From positions 1 to 40,403 of the IMG/VR virus record IMGVR_UViG_3300042922_000501: a stretch of 40,403 bases of DNA. The stretch is one strand, 5' to 3'. Of the stretch, positions 5,998 to 38,158 are shown in pieces. A program made the translations under genes and the position numbers. The first letter of the stretch is position 1; every line of letters begins with the position of its first letter. Under the pieces are notes generated by a model, which worked only from the letters and a program-made list of their open reading frames with translations, ran no database searches and was not told the DNA's origin. The DNA comes from a virus.

Positions 5998-8900
5998 TTG
6001 AATAACTTAATTGAATATGCAAATATAGCAAAAAATAGATTGAAATTTGAGTTCCCATATGATGTATCAGATTGGATTAATAACATGAATATGATGATGG
6101 AAAATTATCATAAACATACAACTTGGTCTGACTTAATTCAAATTGACTCCGCCACAGATATTATTGATTTCATGAAAAAATTGGACTCATATGAGTGTAA
6201 GTGTTTATTCTCAGGAGAACATGGATATCAAGGTGAGTGGCTATATATTTATGATGTTTGCAAAAATACATATGACGAAAATGCAAGAAAAAAAATGGGA
6301 TTAAAAAACCCATTACAATTCAGATATTCTACAGAAGCATATTGGGTAAAAGATAGAAAAGAAAAGGATAGGACTAATTGCCATATAGTAATAGTAGCTA
6401 GAACATACCAAGCAATGAGAAAATTAAATTATATCTTATCTATGGCAAGCATAGACGGGTTCTATGGAAAACCTAGAATAGATTTAGACTTATTGTTTCA
6501 ATTGACTAAAGATGAAGTATACATAACCTCTGCCTGTATTGCTGGATGGAAGTATGATGACGCAAAAGATATTTGGCTAAAAATATGGAGACATTTTGGA
6601 GATAGCTTCTTTTTAGAATATCAGACACATAACACACAGCCACAAAAAGATCTAAATCTACTTATTTATGATATGTCTCAAGAATATGGGATTCAAACCA
6701 TTATTGGGCTAGATACTCATTATATAAATGAAGAAGATAGAATTAAACGAGATAATTTACTTAAAAGAAAAGGTCAACACTATGATGACGAAAATGGGTG
6801 GTATATGGATTTCCCCAGTGGTTATGGTGCATATAAAAGAATGGAAGAACAATGTGTTTTGCCTAAAGAAGAAATTATTTATTCTATGATGAATACACAT
6901 GTTTTTTTAAATGGATGTGATGATATCACTATAAATACTGATTTTAAGATTCCTATTTTACCGCAATATCAGAAATATAATTACAATGAAAGGTCAAAAA
7001 TTTTATCAGAGATTCTAAATGATAAATTTGAAAATGAAGATGATGAGCATAAAACAGAAGATAGAAATCAAGGAATGTTATATGAATATGGAGAAGTAGA
7101 TGGTAGCAATACAGTCGATTATTTCTTAGACAATAATGCTTTGGTGGATTTAGCAGTTACGAAATACAACGGACAGCTGACAACAACATCAAGAGGAAGC
7201 GCAAGTTCTTATTATACGAGTAAATTGTTAGGTTTCACGACTATGGATAGATTTGAATCAGAAGTCCCTATTTATCCTGAACGGTTTATAACAAGAGACA
7301 GAATCTTATCTTCTCATCAAATGCCAGATATTGATTTCAATGTGTCATCACAAGAACCTTTTGTTTTAGCGGCAAAAGAATTATTTGGAGAACATGGTTG
7401 TTATCCTCTTTTGGCAGTTGGAAAACTCGGAGAGAAATCTGGGTTTAAGTTATATGCAGATATCAAAGGAATCGAGCCAAGTATTGCGAATGAGATTTCA
7501 AAATGTATTGACCAATATAATGAAGCATTAAAACAAGTTGATGATGAGGAAGATAAAAAAGATATACATATTGAAGATTATATAACAGATAAAACCCATT
7601 TACAAATATTTAACGATAGTAAACCATATCAAGGAATAATCGAGCAAGCAAAAGTTCATGCTTGTTTTTTAAAAGGACAACTGGTTCATATGTCGGATGG
7701 ATATAAAAAAATAGAGGATATCAATGTTGGAGATTTTGTATTAACACATAACAACAAATATAGCCAAGTTATAGAGACCATGAAAAATAAGACAGATGAA
7801 ATTGTTGATGTCAAAATTACTGGAGATAAAATTACATGTACTCCAAATCATCCATTTTATTCAATGGTCGATAATGAAATAAAATGGTGCGCCGCTGAAG
7901 AATTAAAGAAAGGGGATTATGTTGGATATCCGATAGACAACAATGCAATTATACCAACGTTTTATCAAGAATGTAAAACATATAAGAACAGATATATTGA
8001 TTTAAACGATAAAAATTTATGGTGGCTTATTGGTAGATATATAGGAGATGGATGGTGTGAAAGTCCAAGAAAAAATTATCATAAAATCGTGATATGTTGT
8101 AATAAAACAGATGAAGTAGAGTTGAATGAAATTATAAGTCACATCCCATCTTACTTAAAATATAAAGTTGAAGAAGCAAATACAACTTACAAAATTAATT
8201 TTTATCATAAACCATTTTTTGAATATTTACAACAATTTGGGAAATATGCTCACGGCAAAAAAATAACATCAGATATTTTTAATCTTCCAATTGATTATCT
8301 GAAAGAATTTATTGTTGGATATTTAAGTGCAGATGGGAATGAATCAATTAATAAAACACATGCTGTTGTATCTTTTAAAACTGTTAGCAAAGAGTTATGT
8401 TATGGACTACAATATTGTATTCATAAAGTATATCGTATTCCTTGTACTATATCAATGATTGACGGACATGACGAATATATAGAAAATAGATTAGTTCATT
8501 CAAAAAAGAAATATGTTGGAAGGTTTTCGGTAGGGTGTGACAAAAGAGAAAATTTTTATAAAGATGGTTTGATTTGGATAAAAGTGAAAGAAGTCACAAA
8601 AAAATCACATAAAACAGAAACATATAATCTTTCTGTTGTTGGAGATAATTCTTATACGATAAATAATGTCGCCGTACACAATTGTGGTTTTATGCTATTC
8701 AATGGAAATCCAAATGATAAAGATGTTGTCGGGTATGGAGACATTAGATATGAAATAGGACTAATCCGGTGTCATTCAGAGAGTACAGGAAAATCAACAA
8801 TTGTAGCAAATATAGAAGGTGGGTTATTAGATTCGTATGGTTATGTAAAAGACGATTTTCTTATAGTTGATGTTGTTGGGATTATTTTTAAACTTTATTC

Positions 8901-10428
8901 AAGTATTAATCGAAAAGTTCCTACCGTTTCAGAGTTAAGAAAAATGGTTCAGGGGGATGAGCTTACTTGGAGAATGTATGAGATTGGTGCAACATGTAGC
9001 CTTAATCAATGTGAAAAGCCAGCTACGACTAAACGAGTTATGAAATATAAACCAAAAGAAATTAAGGAATTAGCTGCCTTTATTGCGGGTATACGTCCAG
9101 GTTTTAAGTCATTACTTGATGGATTTTTAAATAGGGTTGAATATTCAAATGGAGAAAAAGCAATAGATGAATTATTAAAAGATTGCTTCCACTACATGTT
9201 ATACCAAGAAGCAGTAATGAAAATATTCTCTTATCTTGGTATCCCTATGAAAGAAAGTTATGACACGATAAAAAAAATAAGTAAGAAAAAATTAGTTGGA
9301 GAAAAATTAGCTCACGTAGAATCTACCTTAAAAAGTCATTGGCAAGAAAATATCGGGAACTTAGATAACTTTGAGCCAGTATATAAGGTAGTAAAAGATA
9401 GTGCTAGATATTCATTTAATGCGCCACATGCTCTAGCAATGGCTAACGACAGTTTATATGAAGCTTGGATGAAAGCACATTATACATCAAAATTCTATGA
9501 AGTGACTTTAAACCATTATCAAGATAAAGGGGATAAGAATAAGGTAGCATCATTAATTAAAGAAGCTATGAATGTATTTGGTTACTCAATGGGTTCTTAT
9601 GAATACGGCAAAGATAATTCAAAATTTACTGTAGATGATGAAACTAAAGTAATTTATCCTAATTTATCAAGTGTTAAAGGAATAGGTGAAAAGGCTGTAG
9701 AAAATATGATGGATTTTTATAATATAGGACTAGATGATTTTATTGATATTTATAGTTCTATTAAAGGAACTAATGTAAATGCTACAGTATTTAAAAATCT
9801 TGTAAAAATCGGTTACTTTAAAAAGTATGGAACGATAAAAAAACTGTTGACCATAGTGGAAATATATGACTCATGGAAAGGATCTACCGGAGAAGGAAGA
9901 AAAACTATCTCAAAATCTAATATTAGTGAACTTGGATTGGATGATATTAATATTTATAAATATGCCACAGATGTTACAAAATCAGGAAAAATAAGTGATA
10001 AGCAATTTACAAACGTTGATTGGCTAGGAATAGTAAAAGAACTAGCATTCCGAGTAGATAATGAAGAATATGGAGTCGCACAGTTAGTAAAATTCCAATA
10101 TGAAGTATTAAATTATATTGATTATATTGATAATACCATTGATTGGAGATATATAACAGTAACAGATCTAGATACACAATATTCCCCGAAATTCAAAGCC
10201 TATTTTATTTCTAATGGTCAGAGTGTAGAAATGAAAGTTCATAAAAAACTTAACTACAAGGATAAAGAAATAGTAACGAGTTTTAATGAAGTTCCATTTG
10301 AAAACGGTGATGTGCTTTATATTAAGAACTGGAAGAAACAACCCAAGAAAAGTAAAATCAATGATGAATGGGTAGTCATTCCAGATGTTGTTGAAAAGTG
10401 GATTAAAGATTATACTAAAATTTATTAA
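5998..10428 (+). CDS. dnaE: DNA polymerase III alpha subunit (DnaE-like), interrupted by an intein
   Basis: 1476 residues including a 340-residue intein, leaving a mature polymerase of about 1136 residues, close to DnaE size. TTG start abutting the previous stop. The N-terminus contains a PHP-like domain (YHKHTTWSD, IGLDTHY). The palm has TTTSRGSASSYYTSKLLG and MPDIDFNV, the latter carrying the two catalytic aspartates (D-x-D). After the intein come NAPHALAMANDSLYEAWMKAHY and SSVKGIGEKAVENMM, the latter a helix-hairpin-helix region. It replicates the phage genome. The intein lies at the conserved HA-CG joint of the palm, so activity should depend on protein splicing. Confidence 0.85.
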   Translation: MNNLIEYANIAKNRLKFEFPYDVSDWINNMNMMMENYHKHTTWSDLIQIDSATDIIDFMKKLDSYECKCLFSGEHGYQGEWLYIYDVCKNTYDENARKKMGLKNPLQFRYSTEAYWVKDRKEKDRTNCHIVIVARTYQAMRKLNYILSMASIDGFYGKPRIDLDLLFQLTKDEVYITSACIAGWKYDDAKDIWLKIWRHFGDSFFLEYQTHNTQPQKDLNLLIYDMSQEYGIQTIIGLDTHYINEEDRIKRDNLLKRKGQHYDDENGWYMDFPSGYGAYKRMEEQCVLPKEEIIYSMMNTHVFLNGCDDITINTDFKIPILPQYQKYNYNERSKILSEILNDKFENEDDEHKTEDRNQGMLYEYGEVDGSNTVDYFLDNNALVDLAVTKYNGQLTTTSRGSASSYYTSKLLGFTTMDRFESEVPIYPERFITRDRILSSHQMPDIDFNVSSQEPFVLAAKELFGEHGCYPLLAVGKLGEKSGFKLYADIKGIEPSIANEISKCIDQYNEALKQVDDEEDKKDIHIEDYITDKTHLQIFNDSKPYQGIIEQAKVHACFLKGQLVHMSDGYKKIEDINVGDFVLTHNNKYSQVIETMKNKTDEIVDVKITGDKITCTPNHPFYSMVDNEIKWCAAEELKKGDYVGYPIDNNAIIPTFYQECKTYKNRYIDLNDKNLWWLIGRYIGDGWCESPRKNYHKIVICCNKTDEVELNEIISHIPSYLKYKVEEANTTYKINFYHKPFFEYLQQFGKYAHGKKITSDIFNLPIDYLKEFIVGYLSADGNESINKTHAVVSFKTVSKELCYGLQYCIHKVYRIPCTISMIDGHDEYIENRLVHSKKKYVGRFSVGCDKRENFYKDGLIWIKVKEVTKKSHKTETYNLSVVGDNSYTINNVAVHNCGFMLFNGNPNDKDVVGYGDIRYEIGLIRCHSESTGKSTIVANIEGGLLDSYGYVKDDFLIVDVVGIIFKLYSSINRKVPTVSELRKMVQGDELTWRMYEIGATCSLNQCEKPATTKRVMKYKPKEIKELAAFIAGIRPGFKSLLDGFLNRVEYSNGEKAIDELLKDCFHYMLYQEAVMKIFSYLGIPMKESYDTIKKISKKKLVGEKLAHVESTLKSHWQENIGNLDNFEPVYKVVKDSARYSFNAPHALAMANDSLYEAWMKAHYTSKFYEVTLNHYQDKGDKNKVASLIKEAMNVFGYSMGSYEYGKDNSKFTVDDETKVIYPNLSSVKGIGEKAVENMMDFYNIGLDDFIDIYSSIKGTNVNATVFKNLVKIGYFKKYGTIKKLLTIVEIYDSWKGSTGEGRKTISKSNISELGLDDINIYKYATDVTKSGKISDKQFTNVDWLGIVKELAFRVDNEEYGVAQLVKFQYEVLNYIDYIDNTIDWRYITVTDLDTQYSPKFKAYFISNGQSVEMKVHKKLNYKDKEIVTSFNEVPFENGDVLYIKNWKKQPKKSKINDEWVVIPDVVEKWIKDYTKIY
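7663..8682 (+). other. intein with LAGLIDADG homing endonuclease inside dnaE
   Basis: Residues 556-895 of the polymerase. The intein starts with Cys (CFLKGQLVHMSDG) and has splicing blocks ITCTPNHPFYSM and NSYTINNVAVHN; it ends His-Asn followed by the extein Cys+1 of CGFMLF. All residues for standard splicing are present: N-terminal Cys, block B with T..H, terminal HN, and Cys+1. In the middle are two LAGLIDADG motifs, LIGRYIGDGW and FIVGYLSADG, so it is probably still able to home. No frame disruption is visible. Confidence 0.88.
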
Positions 10429-13385: not shown

Positions 13386-13416
13386 TAATATGATAAAAAT
13401 AAAAGGAGAAAATATT

Positions 13417-13854
13417 ATGATAATAAAAGAAGAAAATAGAGATTTATTCACAGTTCCGCAAGGTTATTATTTAGCACATTGTATTAGTGGAGATTTTGCA
13501 TTAGGTGCTGGTATTGCAAAGCAATTTGTAGATATATATAACATGAAAGATAAATTACATGACTGGTTTGAGCTTGATGATGGAGAAAAATATGGATATG
13601 TCGGTAAGGCATTATTGATAGACAATGTGTTTAACCTCGTTACAAAGGCTAGATGTTATCATAAACCAACATACGATACTTTATCAGAAACCTTAGAAGA
13701 TATGAAAAACTACATATTATCATTGAAGATTACGAAATTAGCAATTCCTCAAATTGGATGTGGATTGGATAGACTTGATTGGGATTGCGTTAAAGAATTG
13801 ATTGAAGAAACATTTGGAGATGTAGATATAGAAATTTTAGTCTGTATTTTATAG
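13417..13854 (+). CDS. TARG1-like macrodomain ADP-ribose glycohydrolase
   Basis: 145 residues; ATG 13417 follows AAAAGGAG. The protein resembles human TARG1/OARD1 along its length: LAHCISGDFALGAGIAKQF (ADP-ribose-binding loop), FNLVTKARCYHKPTYDTL, and IPQIGCGLDRLDW. The TARG1 catalytic lysine and aspartate correspond to K77 (in VTKAR) and D118 (in CGLDRL); both are present. TARG1 removes ADP-ribose linked to acidic side chains, and its bacterial relatives in DarG remove it from DNA. The PARP gene begins 11 bases downstream, so this is the eraser of a writer/eraser pair. Confidence 0.85.
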   Translation: MIIKEENRDLFTVPQGYYLAHCISGDFALGAGIAKQFVDIYNMKDKLHDWFELDDGEKYGYVGKALLIDNVFNLVTKARCYHKPTYDTLSETLEDMKNYILSLKITKLAIPQIGCGLDRLDWDCVKELIEETFGDVDIEILVCIL

Positions 13855-13864
13855 GAGGAGTTTA

Positions 13865-15079
13865 ATGGATAATGCAAATCCCATATATTTAGTAATGGTT
13901 ACATCTGATAATCATAATAAATATTATAAAATGAATCCAAATGGAGATTATTTTAATGTTGAATTTGGACGAATAGGAAATGGTGGCTTCCAAACTGCCA
14001 CTTACCCTATATCTCAATGGAATAAAAAATATAATGAAAAAGTTAAAAAAGGATATACAGACCAAACGAGATTGGTCTTAGATTTACTTCCTAGGCAAGA
14101 TAGAAAACCAAGAAGTGAATATAAAGAAATAGAAAATAATGTAGTAGCAAGTATTGTTTCAAGATTGCAATCTATGGCAAGGCAAGCAATTAAAGATAAT
14201 TATACAATATCATCTAATAAAGTAACACAAGCTATGATTGATGAAGCGCAAGTGGTTTTGACTCAATTAATCAATGAAAACAATGTTGAAAAATTCAATA
14301 ATACATTAATTAGATTATTCGAAGTTATTCCACGTAAGATGAGTAGAGTTTCAGATTATCTTGCTAATAATGAAAGAGATTTTTCTAAAATTATTGAAAA
14401 AGAACAAGATTTGTTAGATGTAATGAAGGGGCAAGTAATACAGAATAAAGTTGATGAGGATATTGAAGATAATATTGAGCAAAATCCAAAGACAATACTC
14501 GAAGTAATGGAATTGCAATTTTCAGAATGTTCTACTGATGATATAGAAAAAATAAAAAATTGTCTAGGATCATGTAGAGATAAATTTTATCAAGCATGGA
14601 AGGTCACAAACAACAAGACACAAGATCGATTTAATAATTTTATAAAAGACCATAATGTAAATAATATTAAATTGCTATGGCATGGAAGTAGAAACGAAAA
14701 TTGGTGGTCAATTGTTAATAGTGGGCTAGTATTAAAACCAACAAATGCAGTAATAACAGGTAAAATGTTTGGATATGGGATTTATTTTGCAACTAAAGCA
14801 AGGAAATCTTTAGGCTATACTTCTTTAAATGGCTCTTATTGGGCAAGAGGTAATTCAAATACAGCCTTTATGGCATTGTATAATGTAGCTTATGGTAATC
14901 CGTATAATGTTCATTCTTTTGATAGCAAGTATTATGATTTTACATATGAGAAATTACAAAAAGAACAACCTAGAGCAAATTGTTTACATGCACATGAAGG
15001 GCAGATGCTAAGAAATGATGAAATCATTGTATATAAAGAAGAACAAACGACAATACAGTATTTAGTAGAATTAAAATAA
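13865..15079 (+). CDS. WGR-domain poly/mono(ADP-ribose) polymerase (PARP)
   Basis: 404 residues, ATG behind ATAGGAGGAG. Residues 5-75 are a WGR domain (FGRIGNGGFQTATYP, then KKYNEKVKKGYTD), which in PARPs senses DNA ends. Residues 85-215 are helical and fit the PARP regulatory domain. Residues 220-404 are the catalytic domain: LLWHGSRNENW (H273), FGYGIYFATKARKS (Y307), NVAYGNP, and LRNDEIIVYKEEQ (E386), followed by IQYLVELK. This gives the H-Y-E triad of NAD+-using PARPs that can extend chains. No zinc fingers or BRCT are present, as in PARP2/3 and bacterial PARPs. It lies directly after a TARG1-like eraser and an ATP-dependent ligase. Confidence 0.88.
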   Translation: MDNANPIYLVMVTSDNHNKYYKMNPNGDYFNVEFGRIGNGGFQTATYPISQWNKKYNEKVKKGYTDQTRLVLDLLPRQDRKPRSEYKEIENNVVASIVSRLQSMARQAIKDNYTISSNKVTQAMIDEAQVVLTQLINENNVEKFNNTLIRLFEVIPRKMSRVSDYLANNERDFSKIIEKEQDLLDVMKGQVIQNKVDEDIEDNIEQNPKTILEVMELQFSECSTDDIEKIKNCLGSCRDKFYQAWKVTNNKTQDRFNNFIKDHNVNNIKLLWHGSRNENWWSIVNSGLVLKPTNAVITGKMFGYGIYFATKARKSLGYTSLNGSYWARGNSNTAFMALYNVAYGNPYNVHSFDSKYYDFTYEKLQKEQPRANCLHAHEGQMLRNDEIIVYKEEQTTIQYLVELK

Positions 15080-23755: not shown

Positions 23756-23836
23756 AAAAATAATATAAAACAAAAAAATTAAGAAAGGAAAAATAATCCT
23801 AGGTAAATGTCTGCGCAGACGATAGAAAATAGGATT
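23756..23836 (+). promoter_or_regulatory. palindromic leader hairpin before the cytosine methyltransferase
   Basis: A variant of the recurring element (AAAAATAATATAAAAC, 23756-23771) precedes AAAGGA (23784-23789). A hairpin with outer stem AATCCTA (23795-23801) / TAGGATT (23830-23836) follows, containing a perfect 12-base palindrome GTCTGCGCAGAC (23809-23820). The methyltransferase start TTG 23835 touches the end of the stem, while the good ribosome site lies before it. An overlapping 13-codon frame (ATG 23807) is also possible. This suggests translational control or an operator. Confidence 0.5.
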
Positions 23837-24962
23837 GAAAAACTATAAATTAGTTAATTTCTGCGAATTTGATAAACATGCAATTCAATCATACTGTAAA
23901 ATACATGGAGTAAACGAAAGTTTAAACCTAGGGGATATAACTCAAGTAAATGAAAAAGAAATTGATGATTTTAATATGATGACTTGGGGTTTTCCATGTA
24001 CTGATATTTCTTTAGCTGGCAAACAAGTTGGTTTTATAGATGAAGATGGAAATAAAACAAGGAGTGGAATGTATTATGAAGGAATTAGAATTTTACGAGA
24101 AAAGAAACCCTCCATTTCTATTATTGAAAATGTAAAAAATTTAACCGCTAAAAAATTTGAACATGAATTTAAAACTGTATTAAAGGATTTAGATAATGCA
24201 GGATATAATACATATTGGAAAGTAATGAACGCAAAGTTTTGTGGTATTCCTCAAAACAGAGAGCGCGTAATTATGCTAAGTATCAGAAAAGACTTAGACA
24301 ATGGTAAGTTTAAGTTTCCACAAGATGTAAAACTTAAAGTACAATTAAAAGATTTACTAGAAGATGGAGTAGAAGAAAAATATTACGTTAAACAAGATAT
24401 TGGGGATAAATTAAAAATACAACTAATTAACAAAGAAATATCTAATAGTATTCGGATTGGTGGAAGAGGTAGTCTTGATCGTCATTCATGGGATTTAGTA
24501 GCTGAACGAGTAAGAATAAATCAAGCTACTAAACAAGGATATATTGAATGTAAAATAGGTGGTGTTGCAGATTTAAGCTATCCGGAGAGTAAGACAAGAA
24601 GAGGTAGAGTTCAAGAAAGTGGAGATATTTGCCCTACTATTACAGCTACACAAACAAATATTTGCAAGATTGAATCAGCTTATAGATACAGACGATTAAC
24701 ACCATTAGAATGTTTTAGAATTATGGGATTTAAAGATGAAGACTTTTATAAGGCAAAATCAATTGGGATAAGAGATGTTCAGCTTTATAAGCAAGCAGGA
24801 AATTCAATTGTTCCAGATGTTTTATATTACATATTTATTGAATTATATAATGCAATGCCTTATTTATTTGAAGATTTAAGATTAACCAGTTTCTTTTCAG
24901 GTATTGGTGCTTTTGAAAGAGCATTAGATAAATTTTATGAGCATATAACATCAAACAATTAA
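23835..24962 (+). CDS. DNA (cytosine-5) methyltransferase, circularly permuted
   Basis: 375 residues from TTG. Motif order is unusual. The chain starts with KLVNFCEFDKHAIQSYC (normally after motif I), then motif IV GFPCTDISLAGKQ (catalytic C55), motif VI SIIENVKNL, and motif VIII IPQNRERV. A recognition region follows, then RRLTPLECFRIMGF (IX) and QAGNSIV (X). SAM-binding motif I, FFSGIGAFERAL, comes last at about residue 353. All elements for activity are present. The gene is followed by a 7-bp hairpin and then the PAPS-reductase-like gene. It probably protects or marks phage DNA. The start is uncertain because no good ribosome site is adjacent. Confidence 0.85.
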   Translation: MKNYKLVNFCEFDKHAIQSYCKIHGVNESLNLGDITQVNEKEIDDFNMMTWGFPCTDISLAGKQVGFIDEDGNKTRSGMYYEGIRILREKKPSISIIENVKNLTAKKFEHEFKTVLKDLDNAGYNTYWKVMNAKFCGIPQNRERVIMLSIRKDLDNGKFKFPQDVKLKVQLKDLLEDGVEEKYYVKQDIGDKLKIQLINKEISNSIRIGGRGSLDRHSWDLVAERVRINQATKQGYIECKIGGVADLSYPESKTRRGRVQESGDICPTITATQTNICKIESAYRYRRLTPLECFRIMGFKDEDFYKAKSIGIRDVQLYKQAGNSIVPDVLYYIFIELYNAMPYLFEDLRLTSFFSGIGAFERALDKFYEHITSNN

Positions 24963-25001
24963 CAAAAAATAAAACAGCTATTTTATTAACATAAAATTAA
25001 T

Positions 25002-25048
25002 AGGAAGGAGTAAGAGGTTTGGTCGACCGATAAAATGCATTTTACTCC
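25002..25048 (+). promoter_or_regulatory. hairpin overlapping the ribosome site of the PAPS-reductase-like gene
   Basis: AGGAAGGAG (25002-25010) runs into a stem GGAGTAA (25007-25013) paired with TTACTCC (25042-25048). The loop holds two further perfect palindromes, GGTCGACC (25021-25028) and TAAAATGCATTTTA (25031-25044). The ATG lies at 25057, eight bases after the stem. The fold would either hide the ribosome site or bring it near the start codon, as known for split sites in phage T4. Confidence 0.5.
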
Positions 25049-25056
25049 ACTAATTA

Positions 25057-26115
25057 ATGACATTAAATGAAATATTAGAAATATGCCCTAAAGATAAAAT
25101 TATAGTTGATAATATTATTCGGGCATATTCAAAAATAAATAGTTCTAAATACAAAAAAATAGTTTGTACAATATCGGGAGGAGCAGATAGCGATATTGTG
25201 ATAGATATTTGTACAAAAATGGATAATGATAATAAGATTACATATGTGTGGTTTGACACGGGTTTAGAGTATGAAGCAACTAAGGAACATCTGAAATATT
25301 TAGAGATTAAATATAATATTTCAATAAAAGTTGAGAAGGCAATAAAAGCTATTCCAACAACATGTAAACAATATGGACAACCTTTCATATCCAAGAACGT
25401 CAGTGAAATGATAAGTAGATTGCAAAAGCATGAATTCAAATGGGAGGATGGTAACTTTGATGAATTACTAGAAAAGTATTGTACTGAAGTAACCGAAGAA
25501 AATGCCATTATTAACGGAAAGCTTAAAAAGGGTATAAGTAAAGTAAACGAAAGATATTGGAAGGGTTGCGTTTCCGCCTTAGAGTGGTGGTGCAATGCTA
25601 AGAAATCTGCCAAAATGGGAATTTGTCAAAATAAACTGCTTAAAGAATTTATGATTGAAAACCCACCAGAACAACCAATATCAAATAAGTGTTGTAAGTA
25701 TGCAAAGAAAGATTTAGCTCATAAGGTGATTAATAATGGACAATTTGATTTGGAAATCACTGGAATAAGAAAAGCAGAGGGAGGAGCTAGAAGTACCGCA
25801 TATAAATCATGTTTTGACGAATCATATGAAAATTGCGATAGATATAGGCCTATATTTTGGTATTTGAATGATACGAAGATTGTATATGAAGACCATTATG
25901 AAATTAAACATAGTTGTTGTTATACAGAGTATGGGTTGAAAAGAACTGGTTGTGCTGGCTGTCCTTTTGGAAGAGATTTTGAGTTTGAACTGGAAGTTAT
26001 AGAGCGGTATGAGCCAAAATTATTCAAGGCAGTAAATGAAATCTTTAAGTATAGTTATGAATACACAAGGAGTTACAGGGACTTTTGTAATAGAATGAAT
26101 CAAAAAACTCGATAA
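25057..26115 (+). CDS. phage PAPS-reductase-like / PP-loop ATP pyrophosphatase
   Basis: 352 residues, ATG 25057. CTISGGADSDIVID (residues 37-50) is the SGGxDS PP-loop that binds and splits ATP in PAPS reductases and DndC-like proteins, and VWFDTGLEYEATKEHL follows as in that family. Cysteines CCKYAKKDL, HSCCYTEYGLKRTGCAGCPFG suggest an iron-sulfur cluster. Its neighbours are DNA methyltransferases, so a thiolation or other DNA-modification role is attractive, but none of the other Dnd proteins is present. Sulfate assimilation by the host pathway is the alternative. Confidence 0.72.
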   Translation: MTLNEILEICPKDKIIVDNIIRAYSKINSSKYKKIVCTISGGADSDIVIDICTKMDNDNKITYVWFDTGLEYEATKEHLKYLEIKYNISIKVEKAIKAIPTTCKQYGQPFISKNVSEMISRLQKHEFKWEDGNFDELLEKYCTEVTEENAIINGKLKKGISKVNERYWKGCVSALEWWCNAKKSAKMGICQNKLLKEFMIENPPEQPISNKCCKYAKKDLAHKVINNGQFDLEITGIRKAEGGARSTAYKSCFDESYENCDRYRPIFWYLNDTKIVYEDHYEIKHSCCYTEYGLKRTGCAGCPFGRDFEFELEVIERYEPKLFKAVNEIFKYSYEYTRSYRDFCNRMNQKTR

Positions 26116-35660: not shown

Positions 35661-35689
35661 TTCATATTGTAATAAAAACAACATATAAA
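35661..35689 (+). promoter_or_regulatory. candidate promoter of the tracrRNA/array/cas12f unit
   Basis: TTCATA (35661-35666), 17 bases, TATAAA (35684-35689), a weak -35 with a good -10, placed immediately before the structured tracrRNA region. The -10 part reads ACAACATATAAAAT, a variant of the recurring intergenic element. Predicted only. Confidence 0.4.
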
Positions 35690-35690
35690 A

Positions 35691-35906
35691 TAGCACCTTA
35701 TGGTGCTCAAGAGATATTATATCTCGGCTGATAGTTCCAGCCATAGATTGAGACAGTAGCCCGTAAATGCTTGGAAACACTAATAAGCTTGGGTTTTACT
35801 CTCAATAAGCCATCCAACACCTTGAGGTTGGTAAAAAGGACGCACTATAATGGGTAATACCTTGTGGCGTGCGAGATTTAACTCTTTTACATAGATATAG
35901 TAATTT
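35691..35906 (+). ncRNA. tracrRNA candidate for the Cas12f1-like nuclease
   Basis: This gene-free stretch is full of paired segments: AGCACC/GGTGCT (35692-35697/35702-35707), GAGATA/TATCTC (35711-35716/35720-35725), GGCTG/CAGCC (35726-35730/35738-35742), ATTGAG/CTCAAT (35747-35752/35801-35806), CCAAC/GTTGG near 35815-35832, and CGCAC/GTGCG (35841-35845/35869-35873). Directly after the last stem, ATTTAACTCTT (35876-35886) is the exact complement of repeat bases 14-24. ATAGTAATTT (35897-35906) is the complement of repeat bases 21-30. A multi-stem RNA ending in an anti-repeat is the architecture of Cas12f tracrRNAs. Confidence 0.8.
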
Positions 35907-35929
35907 GCTTAACTGCTGATTTTACTAGG

Positions 35930-36148
35930 GTTTAATATTAACAAGAGTTAAATTACTATTCTGGTAGTTTGTAATATATATCCATTAATTCCTGTTTAAT
36001 ATTAACAAGAGTTAAATTACTATAAAGTAATAGCAAATATTTTATTCTTGAAAGAAATAGTTTAATATTAACAAGAGTTAAATTACTATGCGTTTGTAAA
36101 GCATTTATCGTATAATGCAGTGCCGTTTAATATTAACAAGAGTTAAAT
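35930..36148 (+). CRISPR. mini CRISPR array: four 30-bp repeats, three spacers
   Basis: Repeats at 35930-35959, 35994-36023, 36060-36089 and 36125-36148 begin GTTTAATATTAACAAGAG and end TTAAATTACTAT. The first three are identical over 30 bases. The fourth matches for 24 bases and then diverges, marking the trailer end. Spacers are 34 (35960-35993), 36 (36024-36059) and 35 bases (36090-36124), unlike each other. Leader side is toward the tracrRNA. There are no cas1, cas2 or csn2 genes nearby, so acquisition must be absent or supplied by the host. Confidence 0.92.
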
Positions 36149-36196
36149 AATGTACAATGAATGTAAATAATAAACAATAAAACACTAGGAGATCTT

Positions 36197-37483
36197 ATGA
36201 TAAAAAATACAAAATTTGAAATAACAAATAAAAATAAATTAATATATAGTGAGCTGTTTAACTTAAGGAACAAGACAATGCAAGCTTGCAATGTAGCATC
36301 TTCACTTCAATTTACAGAATTGATAAATAAAAGGCAAGATATAAAACAAGATTACGGGAAATCGTTTCAGTGTTATGTTGAGGATAATATGAAGAAAATA
36401 ATGGATGGATATAATACGGGAAATATTGCTCAAACTAGAGCTTTTGTATTTGGAAAATCAAACTTTAATCCATCTGAAATATTAAAGGGGGAATCTTCAC
36501 TGACCTCATATAAAAAGAACAACCCAATTGTCATACATAATAAATCGTATAAGATTTATAAAGACGATAACGAAGATTGGTTCGTTGAAATCGGGTTATT
36601 TAACAATGCAAGAAAGAAGGAATTAGATATAAAAAGGGTTGAGTTTAAAATAAATAATTTACATAAATCTATTGTTCCAATTTTAGAAAGAGTTTCAAAC
36701 TTGGAATATAAGCAAGGTGCTGGGCAAATAACATATGATGAAAGAAAAAAGAAGTGGTTCTTTGGATTAGCATATACGTTTGAACCAGAAAAAGAAGAAT
36801 TACTAGACCCGAATAAAATACTTGGAGTGGATTTAGGAGTTGTAAATACTGCAACATTTAGTATCTATAATATAACAAATAAAACATACGAAAGAGTCAA
36901 ATATAATGAATCAATAATATCTGGAGAAGAAATAAGACATTATAGAAATACTATAGAAAAAAGAAGAAAAGAATTGTCCCGTTCAACAAAGTGGGCTTCT
37001 GAGAATAAAACCGGTCATGGAAGAAGGCAACGGATGAAAGACTCTGATAAAATTGGAGATAAATGTGCCAGATTCAGAGATACGTATAATCACAAGGTCA
37101 GTAGATATTTGGTCAATCAAGCCATTAAATATAAATGTGGAATAATTCAGATGGAGAATCTTAGTGGATTCAGCAAAGAGCAAGAAAATTCCATGCTCAA
37201 AAATTGGGCATATTATGATTTACAAAGCAAAATAAAATACAAAGCAGAGGAGGTAGGAATTGAATTCAAACTTATTAATCCAAAATACACATCCAAGAGA
37301 TGCTCCAAGTGTGGTTGCATTCATGAAGATAATAGGGATTGCAAAAACAACCAATCAAAATTCCAGTGTGTAAAATGTGGACATACAGAAAATGCGGATA
37401 TAAACGCCAGTAAAAACATTGCATTACCAGATATTGAAACTATTATTGTTAACACAATAAAGAGTAATATGAAACAAAACTAA
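36197..37483 (+). CDS. cas12f1: Cas12f1-like compact RNA-guided nuclease (type V-F)
   Basis: 428 residues, ATG behind CTAGGAGATC, 49 bases after the array. The C-terminal half aligns by eye with AsCas12f1 (422 residues): ILGVDLGVVNTA (RuvC-I, D212), KCARFRDTYNHKVSRYLV, GIIQMENLSG (RuvC-II, E320), LKNWAYYDLQSKIKYKAEE, SKRCSKCGC ... FQCVKCG (zinc ribbon, C369, C372, C391, C394) and NADINASKNIA (RuvC-III, D401). All three catalytic acids are kept. The N-terminal 200 residues are the REC/wedge part. Family members form dimers and cut double-stranded DNA with crRNA plus tracrRNA at T-rich PAMs. TnpB is the near alternative, but a repeat array and anti-repeat favour Cas12f. Confidence 0.9.
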   Translation: MIKNTKFEITNKNKLIYSELFNLRNKTMQACNVASSLQFTELINKRQDIKQDYGKSFQCYVEDNMKKIMDGYNTGNIAQTRAFVFGKSNFNPSEILKGESSLTSYKKNNPIVIHNKSYKIYKDDNEDWFVEIGLFNNARKKELDIKRVEFKINNLHKSIVPILERVSNLEYKQGAGQITYDERKKKWFFGLAYTFEPEKEELLDPNKILGVDLGVVNTATFSIYNITNKTYERVKYNESIISGEEIRHYRNTIEKRRKELSRSTKWASENKTGHGRRQRMKDSDKIGDKCARFRDTYNHKVSRYLVNQAIKYKCGIIQMENLSGFSKEQENSMLKNWAYYDLQSKIKYKAEEVGIEFKLINPKYTSKRCSKCGCIHEDNRDCKNNQSKFQCVKCGHTENADINASKNIALPDIETIIVNTIKSNMKQN

Positions 37484-37501: not shown

Positions 37502-38158
37502 ATGAAATTTACAAATACAGAAGTTTTTAATTTTAGAAATGCTTTTAGGGGAATGAGGAACCCTTTAGAAAGTTGGAATAAATCTGACAGTATGTATAAC
37601 ATGATAGATTTAGGCAATGGGTACGCAAAACAAGATGAATATCTTTTAGGAGAAAAAGATATTAAATTAGCTCAAAAGTTGATTATTGCAGGTAGTGAAC
37701 ATAGAAAATTTCTTCGTCAGATATTTATTTCAGTTGATATTATCGCTCCACTTTACTGGTGGAAGGAATTTGATACATATAAAACTGGAACTACAGCAAA
37801 TAGCACATCAACAATGCATAAACTGTCTTCCAATTCCATAAAAAAAGATTGTTTTGAATTTGATTGGGGGTTGAATGAAGTTATAGATTCAATTATGTAT
37901 GCTACGATTTATGATTTAGAAGCTATCAGAAAGAAGTTTAGTGAAACAAAAGATAAAAAATATTGGAAAGCATTAATTCAATTGTTGCCAGAATCATGGT
38001 TGCAAACTCGTACAGTTACTTTGAACTATGAAAATGTATTAAATATAATCCATCAAAGGTCAGGTCATAAACTTACTGAATGGTCTATAGATTTTATTGA
38101 CTGGGCAAAGACATTGCCATATTCCGAAGAATTATTGTTTATTGGAGGTGATAAATAG
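37502..38158 (+). CDS. divergent ThyX-like protein
   Basis: About 218 residues; ATG 37502 behind GAGGAGATTT. The middle FISVDIIAPLYWWKEFDTYKTGTTANSTSTMHKL resembles the FAD/dUMP-binding ThyX signature RHRxxSxNxxSxR, with changed arginines (YKTGTTANSTST). The end TRTVTLNYENVLNIIHQRSGHKLTEW has the helix and HQRxxHK pattern of that family. ThyX makes dTMP from dUMP. The altered signature suggests a changed substrate or lost catalysis. The next two genes are also nucleotide enzymes, which supports the family guess. Confidence 0.5.
   Translation: MKFTNTEVFNFRNAFRGMRNPLESWNKSDSMYNMIDLGNGYAKQDEYLLGEKDIKLAQKLIIAGSEHRKFLRQIFISVDIIAPLYWWKEFDTYKTGTTANSTSTMHKLSSNSIKKDCFEFDWGLNEVIDSIMYATIYDLEAIRKKFSETKDKKYWKALIQLLPESWLQTRTVTLNYENVLNIIHQRSGHKLTEWSIDFIDWAKTLPYSEELLFIGGDK

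What the first reader, a model, noticed from the sequence alone, without database searches (positions are those of the whole stretch)
35661..37483. Phage-borne, adaptation-free Cas12f1 mini-CRISPR with its own tracrRNA
A complete interference-only type V-F unit fits in 1.8 kb: promoter candidate, multi-stem RNA ending in an 11-base anti-repeat to the array, four-repeat array with three spacers, and a 428-residue Cas12f1-like nuclease with all RuvC acids and zinc cysteines. It is embedded between phage genes (endonucleases and nucleotide enzymes) and an integrase arm. Cas12f and virus-encoded CRISPR systems are known in general; a temperate anaerobe phage carrying one with an intact guide set suggests it fights competing phages or plasmids. 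The small size makes it noteworthy as a new natural variant.
Basis: partly seen in the sequence, partly recalled or inferred. Interest (0 to 1): 0.92.

Follow-up and report, generated by a model that had tools for sequence, protein, structure and literature searches.

The report
Phage-borne miniature Cas12f1 CRISPR locus
A fragment of an uncultured phage genome carries a complete miniature DNA-cutting CRISPR system (nuclease, guide-scaffold RNA and three stored guides); it is a good new member of a known family whose phage-borne branch looks larger than the literature found here describes, but what its guides target is unknown.

Summary
Window 35692-37483 encodes a scaffold (tracr) RNA, a four-repeat/three-spacer array and an intact 428-aa nuclease, all on the + strand between phage genes. 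The protein is a Cas12f1 (V-F1/V-U3): PADLOC E about 1e-112, best PDB relatives AsCas12f1 (E 1e-76), predicted fold closest to AsCas12f1 (Z 32). In a tree it sits in a supported clade of clostridial and viral Cas12f1, apart from the TnpB rows. The tracrRNA is real by comparison: four helices recur in six related loci with compensatory changes, followed at the same place by an anti-repeat matching each locus's own repeat. No Cas1/Cas2 was found in this 40-kb fragment or in 15 related viral contigs. The three spacers match nothing searched. Related arrays target a Geobacillus phage and a sister plasmid, so inter-element competition is the likeliest use. About 20 other distinct viral loci carry Cas12f1, so this is a new member of a known kind. 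Noteworthy extras: the tracr-array-effector order (array position switched at least 8 times in the family), a second anti-repeat, and a conserved 22-nt block abutting the array. 'Temperate' and 'unusually small' are not supported.

The parts
35661..35689 (+). promoter candidate (TTCATA, 17 nt, TATAAA)
   Evidence: read from sequence; promoter-like sites are not enriched over shuffles here: weak
35692..35929 (+). tracrRNA / guide-scaffold region, up to the first repeat (true ends unknown)
   Evidence: fold z -3.0; four helices shared with six relatives, 15 of 21 pairs with two-sided changes
35726..35742 (+). scaffold hairpin A (35726-35730 with 35738-35742)
   Evidence: found de novo in relatives without the window; covariation
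35747..35806 (+). scaffold long stem B (35747-35753 with 35800-35806)
   Evidence: covariation; in the window's own minimum-energy fold
35814..35831 (+). scaffold hairpin C (35814-35818 with 35827-35831)
   Evidence: covariation
35841..35873 (+). scaffold stem D (35841-35845 with 35869-35873)
   Evidence: found de novo in relatives; covariation
35876..35886 (+). anti-repeat a (pairs with repeat positions 14-24)
   Evidence: 11-nt perfect complement, 14/2000 shuffles; same place, 3' of stem D, in six relatives, each matching its own repeat
35897..35906 (+). anti-repeat b (complement of repeat positions 21-30), role unknown
   Evidence: 10 nt, 3/1000 shuffles; similar in L010, L052, L056
35908..35929 (+). 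22-nt block abutting the first repeat, conserved in relatives
   Evidence: mean pairwise identity 51% against 28% shuffled, 0/5000
35930..36154 (+). CRISPR array: four 30-nt repeats (last one degenerate at its 3' end), three spacers
35960..35993 (+). spacer 1 (34 nt)
   Evidence: no target
36024..36059 (+). spacer 2 (36 nt)
   Evidence: no target
36090..36124 (+). spacer 3 (35 nt)
   Evidence: no target
36197..37483 (+). cas12f1, 428 aa, RuvC and zinc residues intact

Best explanation
This is an interference-only type V-F1 (Cas12f1, V-U3 branch) CRISPR-Cas locus carried by an uncultured large phage of an anaerobe, probably a Clostridium-like host. A transcript starting near 35690 yields the tracrRNA and, directly behind it, the repeat-spacer array; with no terminator seen before cas12f1 (ATG 42 nt after the array), it probably reads on into the nuclease gene. 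The tracrRNA folds into four helices and pairs through its anti-repeat with the middle of each repeat. Because it lies immediately 5' of repeat 1, the unprocessed RNA can already fold as a natural single guide for spacer 1. A Cas12f1 dimer loaded with this guide would cut double-stranded DNA matching a spacer next to a 5' T-rich (or C-rich) PAM, most likely the DNA of competing phages or plasmids in the same cell. Shown by sequence and comparison: protein family, intact catalytic residues, array, tracrRNA structure, phage context. Inferred from the family: dimerisation, PAM, dsDNA cleavage. Inferred from relatives' spacers only: the competitor-targeting role.
For: Cas12f profiles: PADLOC Cas12u3 2e-112, Cas12f 2e-110 over the full length. 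PDB: AsCas12f1 1.6e-76. Model pLDDT 86; AsCas12f1 Z 32, rmsd 4.1, 395 residues, against TnpB Z 20. Tree: clade of 13 clostridial/viral Cas12f1 at SH-aLRT 100, sisters Clostridium MAG and Sarcina at 98. tracr covariation: 96.6% of cells paired, 43 two-sided changes against 15 in shuffles; helices A and D found de novo in relatives without the window. The anti-repeat lies at the homologous place in all seven loci. No Cas1 or Cas2. Phage genes around it: primase, helicase, polymerase, class III RNR, ligase, guanylate kinase, integrase. Relatives' spacers: L021 viral locus against a Geobacillus phage, 34/36 with 5' TTTA; L006 plasmid against a sister plasmid, 32/33, its own copy differing. V-U3 Cas12f cleave dsDNA with 5' T- or C-rich PAMs and some protect E. 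coli (PMC7229846).
Against: None of the three spacers has a credible match, so the role is not shown for this locus. There is no RNA or activity evidence. The contig is a 40-kb fragment, so adaptation genes elsewhere in the genome cannot be excluded. The hand-made structural alignment leans towards the structure tested.
Confidence: 0.75

Rival explanations
1. A transposon TnpB that happens to lie beside tandem repeats.
For: NCBIfam and PHROGs call the protein TnpB/transposase; Cas12f descends from TnpB.
Against: Cas12f profiles score more than twice as high as the TnpB profile. The tree places it inside Cas12f1, apart from the TnpB rows. Nearly every relative has its own array, and close relatives have a matching anti-repeat. 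No tnpA recognised beside it.
Confidence: 0.02
2. A functional Cas12f1 whose targets are host genes or host defence islands, so that the phage uses it for host takeover or counter-defence, as ICP1 does with its I-F system.
For: Phage CRISPRs with such targets are known (PMC11656645); the spacers here are unmatched, so host targets are not excluded.
Against: The two relatives with clear foreign targets hit another phage or plasmid.
Confidence: 0.15
3. A binding or regulatory system: guides used to repress the phage's own or a host gene rather than to cut.
For: L029, a related viral locus, has a spacer matching its own genome 34/34; L005 has a RuvC D-to-N change.
Against: All catalytic residues are intact here; no self match of the window's spacers (best 24/36).
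Confidence: 0.08
4. A decaying relic no longer used.
For: Short array, degenerate last repeat, no spacer match.
Against: Intact ORF and active site, identical internal repeats, intact anti-repeat and scaffold helices. A degenerate end repeat is usual in CRISPR arrays.
Confidence: 0.06

Closest known systems
AsCas12f1 (Acidibacillus sulfuroxidans; 7wju, 8dzj, 8j12) and other V-U3 Cas12f1
   Same: size (422 against 428 aa), fold (Z 32), catalytic residues; multi-helix tracrRNA plus repeat:anti-repeat duplex (five stem loops are described for AsCas12f, PMC13186708)
   Different: 37% identity; different repeat; array upstream of the gene; phage-borne; PAM untested
Clostridial Cas12f1 of Clostridium MAG_CA253 (L051), Sarcina ventriculi (L052), C. 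paraputrificum (L010/L053)
   Same: nearest in the tree or in repeat (41-48% identity); same tracr helices; the C. paraputrificum repeat is identical over the first 15 nt
   Different: their tracr-array block lies downstream of the effector, the window's upstream; the 3' half of the repeat differs
Alicyclobacillus phage MMB025 locus (PV686781; gene annotated as transposase, with a CRISPR annotated upstream)
   Same: phage-borne Cas12f1 with a short array just upstream, among phage DNA-metabolism genes
   Different: 37% identity, another clade, longer repeat
Virus-encoded type V systems of landfill phages (PMC12607003) and virus-borne mini-CRISPR arrays (PMC6858448)
   Same: phage-borne, without adaptation genes, small; proposed role in inter-virus conflict
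   Different: the landfill survey reports no viral effector grouping with Cas12f1 in its results; archaeal mini-arrays borrow the host's Cas proteins, this one has its own

Membership tests
Cas12f1 (type V-F1 / V-U3) | Cas12f sequence profile over the whole protein | tested here: met
   PADLOC Cas12u3 and Cas12f, E about 1e-110, residues 1-419
Cas12f1 (type V-F1 / V-U3) | phylogenetic placement with Cas12f1, apart from TnpB | tested here: met
   clade SH-aLRT 100; TnpB rows outside (the root itself is weak)
Cas12f1 (type V-F1 / V-U3) | Cas12f fold with RuvC and TNB zinc domain | tested here: met
Cas12f1 (type V-F1 / V-U3) | intact RuvC triad and zinc cysteines | tested here: met
   D212, E320, D401; C369, C372, C391, C394
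Cas12f1 (type V-F1 / V-U3) | CRISPR array adjacent to the gene | tested here: met
Cas12f1 (type V-F1 / V-U3) | tracrRNA with anti-repeat | tested here: met
   covariation and positional homology; expression not testable
Cas12f1 (type V-F1 / V-U3) | PAM-dependent dsDNA cleavage as an asymmetric dimer | not testable with these tools
   known for relatives (PMC7229846, PMC13186708)
IS200/IS605 or IS607 TnpB | passes the TnpB-specific IS200 or IS607 model cut-offs | tested here: not met
   56 of 425 bits and 50 of 350 bits; only the broad guided_TnpB and TIGR01766 models pass
Complete adaptive CRISPR-Cas system | Cas1 and Cas2 | tested here: not met
   none in this contig or 15 related viral contigs; the contigs may be fragments

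The most novel reading that the evidence does not exclude
The tracr-array block of this clade is a conserved mobile cassette that permutes around the effector. Its leader-proximal 22-nt block and second anti-repeat are functional: either a docking site for spacer acquisition by host Cas1-Cas2 in trans, or a switch in which anti-repeat b captures repeat 1 and controls whether the transcript acts as a natural single guide or reads on into cas12f1.
Probability: 0.15. Interest if true: 0.7.

Novelty: new member of a known kind. Interest (0 to 1): 0.45.

Why it matters
It adds a complete 1.8-kb, naturally compact editor candidate with a comparatively supported guide scaffold. The survey behind it suggests that Cas12f1 loci without adaptation genes are widespread on phages and plasmids, where GenBank entries call them transposases. 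Two relatives have spacers that hit another phage or a sister plasmid, which makes the idea that mobile elements use Cas12f1 against each other directly testable.

Tried and rejected
Spacer targets: GenBank phages with sensitive blastn (hits of 20-27 nt at E 0.1-5, chance level), IMG/VR exact 20-24-nt seeds, own contig (best 24/36): nothing. Exact repeat core in IMG/VR: nothing. Single-sequence IMG/VR protein scan: nothing; the profile scan worked. Rfam: no family. DNA-level relatives of the window's right 24 kb among GenBank phages: none. Association of the upstream array with phages and plasmids: Fisher p 0.003 (3e-5 with plasmids and a prophage-like locus added), but tree-independent pairs were too few to confirm, so not claimed. 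A strict own-against-foreign anti-repeat test over all 32 loci is weak because exact-run length is crude (own 8.0, foreign 6.4); within the close clade the positional agreement is the stronger evidence. MAFFT of full tracr regions with the window aligned loops poorly, so the helices were paired by hand and checked against a window-free RNAalifold run. The first automatic spacer extraction listed a false window spacer; corrected. L013, L019, L070, L095 and others were left out of the tree as fragments or duplicates.

Full report
WHAT IS THERE. The window is a 40,403-base linear IMG/VR virus record. At 35930-36154 lie four 30-nt repeats, GTTTAATATTAACAAGAGTTAAATTACTAT, spaced 64, 66 and 65 nt, the last losing its 3' six bases. 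This fits an array read left to right with its old end facing the gene. Forty-two bases after the array an intact 428-codon ORF starts (36197-37483), with AGGAG before its ATG; the next phage gene has an ATG at 37502. No terminator-like site on the + strand separates array and gene, so one transcript could serve both.

THE PROTEIN. PADLOC's Cas12u3 and Cas12f profiles match end to end (2e-112, 2e-110). NCBIfam gives only broad TnpB-superfamily models above cut-off, and PHROGs says transposase, which is why such genes are often named so. Among solved structures the nearest are AsCas12f1 (1.6e-76), OsCas12f and SpCas12f1. An AlphaFold2 model from 27 relatives (pLDDT 86) aligns to AsCas12f1 over 395 residues at Z 32, against Z 20 for the best TnpB. 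The RuvC triad D212/E320/D401 and four zinc cysteines are in place. In a 79-row tree the window falls in a 13-row clade (SH-aLRT 100) of Clostridium, Sarcina, Petrimonas and viral Cas12f1; its sisters are a Clostridium MAG and Sarcina ventriculi (98). The haloarchaeal and viral TnpB rows fall outside, though the root between the two sides is weakly supported.

THE GUIDE SCAFFOLD. The 215 nt before the array fold better than shuffles (z -3.0). The comparative evidence is stronger. In C. tagluense, C. paraputrificum, C. ihumii, C. brassicae, the Clostridium MAG and Sarcina, the stretch before the first repeat holds the same series: hairpin A, long stem B, hairpin C, stem D, anti-repeat. Counting 21 pairs over seven loci, 96.6% of cells pair, 15 pairs show two-sided changes and 43 cells do, against 15 expected from shuffles; sliding the partners by one base drops pairing to about 35%. 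That alignment was made by hand and leans towards the structure. RNAalifold on the six relatives alone, without the window, finds A and D unaided, and the window has both in the same order. Right after D comes the anti-repeat, pairing with repeat positions 14-24 in the window and about 16-25 in the others, each with its own repeat although the repeats differ. Published Cas12f guides have four (OsCas12f, RhCas12f) or five (AsCas12f) stem loops with a long stem 2 (PMC13186708), which fits.

MECHANISM. Shown: components, homology, scaffold. Inferred from the family: V-U3 Cas12f proteins cut dsDNA next to 5' T- or C-rich PAMs and some protect E. coli (PMC7229846). Inferred here: because tracr, anti-repeat and repeat 1 are contiguous on one strand, the primary transcript folds with anti-repeat a paired to repeat 1, that is, as a natural single guide for spacer 1, much like the engineered ones. 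Later repeats would be paired in trans.

TARGETS. The three spacers match nothing credible. To learn what the family does, some 60 spacers of relatives were searched in GenBank phages or plasmids and about 90 against the fetched loci. L021, a viral locus of Anoxybacillus, has a spacer matching Geobacillus phage NIIg9.7 34/36 with TTTA on the 5' side, and two sister phages 32/32 over part of it. The Lysinibacillus plasmid locus L006 has a spacer matching 32/33 of the HTH gene beside cas12f on a sister locus (L081) with ATTC 5'; the carrier's own copy differs at several positions and has ATCA instead. Both fit competition between mobile elements. One counter-example, L029, matches its own contig perfectly.

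ADAPTATION. Neither Cas1 nor Cas2 is detectable in this contig or 15 related viral contigs, while the control genomes ring. All are possibly fragments. Lack of adaptation genes is usual for phage CRISPRs (PMC12607003).

PHAGE. Replicative helicase, primase, DNA polymerase, PD-(D/E)XK exonuclease, ligase, class III ribonucleotide reductase, dUTPase, HNH endonucleases, guanylate kinase and a tyrosine integrase cut by the contig end. Class III RNR and the clostridial sisters point to an anaerobe; host and lifestyle are not established. The gene after cas12f1 (phrog_6721) also follows the effector in viral contigs L023 and L024, and C. tagluense L057 has its Cas12f1 beside homologues of the window's polymerase and its neighbour, so related phages carry this cassette near replication genes.

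NOVELTY. The profile scan found 25 IMG/VR loci of the Cas12f kind, about 20 after removing duplicates, and GenBank phage MMB025 has one with an annotated CRISPR. So this is a new member of a known kind. A landfill phage survey reported no viral effector grouping with Cas12f1 in its results, so the breadth of the phage-borne Cas12f1 group may be underappreciated; the main paper on virus-encoded CRISPR (Al-Shayeb 2022) is not held and could not be checked. The window's tracr-array-effector order differs from its nearest sisters (effector-tracr-array); on the tree the order changes at least eight times.

UNEXPLAINED. A second anti-repeat (35897-35906, complement of repeat 21-30) lies downstream of the first; the two cannot pair with one repeat at once in the usual geometry. 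Similar ones lie within 35 nt of repeat 1 in L010, L052 and L056 (1-4 of 1000 shuffles each). A 22-nt block abutting repeat 1 is conserved (51% against 28%), odd for loci without adaptation genes.

Noticed in passing
window 5998-10428: The DNA polymerase ORF carries an intein-like insert of roughly 340 aa (from Cys about aa 556, ACFLKGQLVHMSDG..., to ...NNVAVHN followed by Cys); relatives lack about aa 530-934.
   Followed up: partly
window 13390-15079: A PARP-catalytic/WGR gene sits directly after a gene 48% identical to the region of a Ruminococcus albus macrodomain gene: a possible ADP-ribosylation writer/eraser pair on a phage.
   Followed up: partly
window 23835-26115: C5-cytosine methyltransferase followed by a PAPS-reductase-like gene; possibly DNA modification.
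   Followed up: no
L029:1132-1165: A viral Cas12f1 array has a spacer identical (34/34) to a small gene of its own contig, 5' flank TTCC: self-targeting or self-regulation.
   Followed up: partly
L006 spacer 2; L081:5361-5393: Plasmid Cas12f1 spacer matches the HTH regulator beside cas12f on a sister locus; the carrier's own copy is mismatched and has another 5' flank.
   Followed up: partly
L021 spacer 4; L131:301-336: Spacer of a viral-contig Cas12f1 (Anoxybacillus) matches Geobacillus phages, with TTTA 5' in NIIg9.7.
   Followed up: yes
L005 (Ruminococcus albus plasmid pRUMAL01), 3701-5062: Cas12f1 relative with RuvC Asp changed to Asn (GVNLG) and no array found nearby: possibly a natural non-cutting form.
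   Followed up: no
L012, L018, L003, L004, L006: Several mobile Cas12f1 loci have two arrays or two repeat families around one effector.
   Followed up: no
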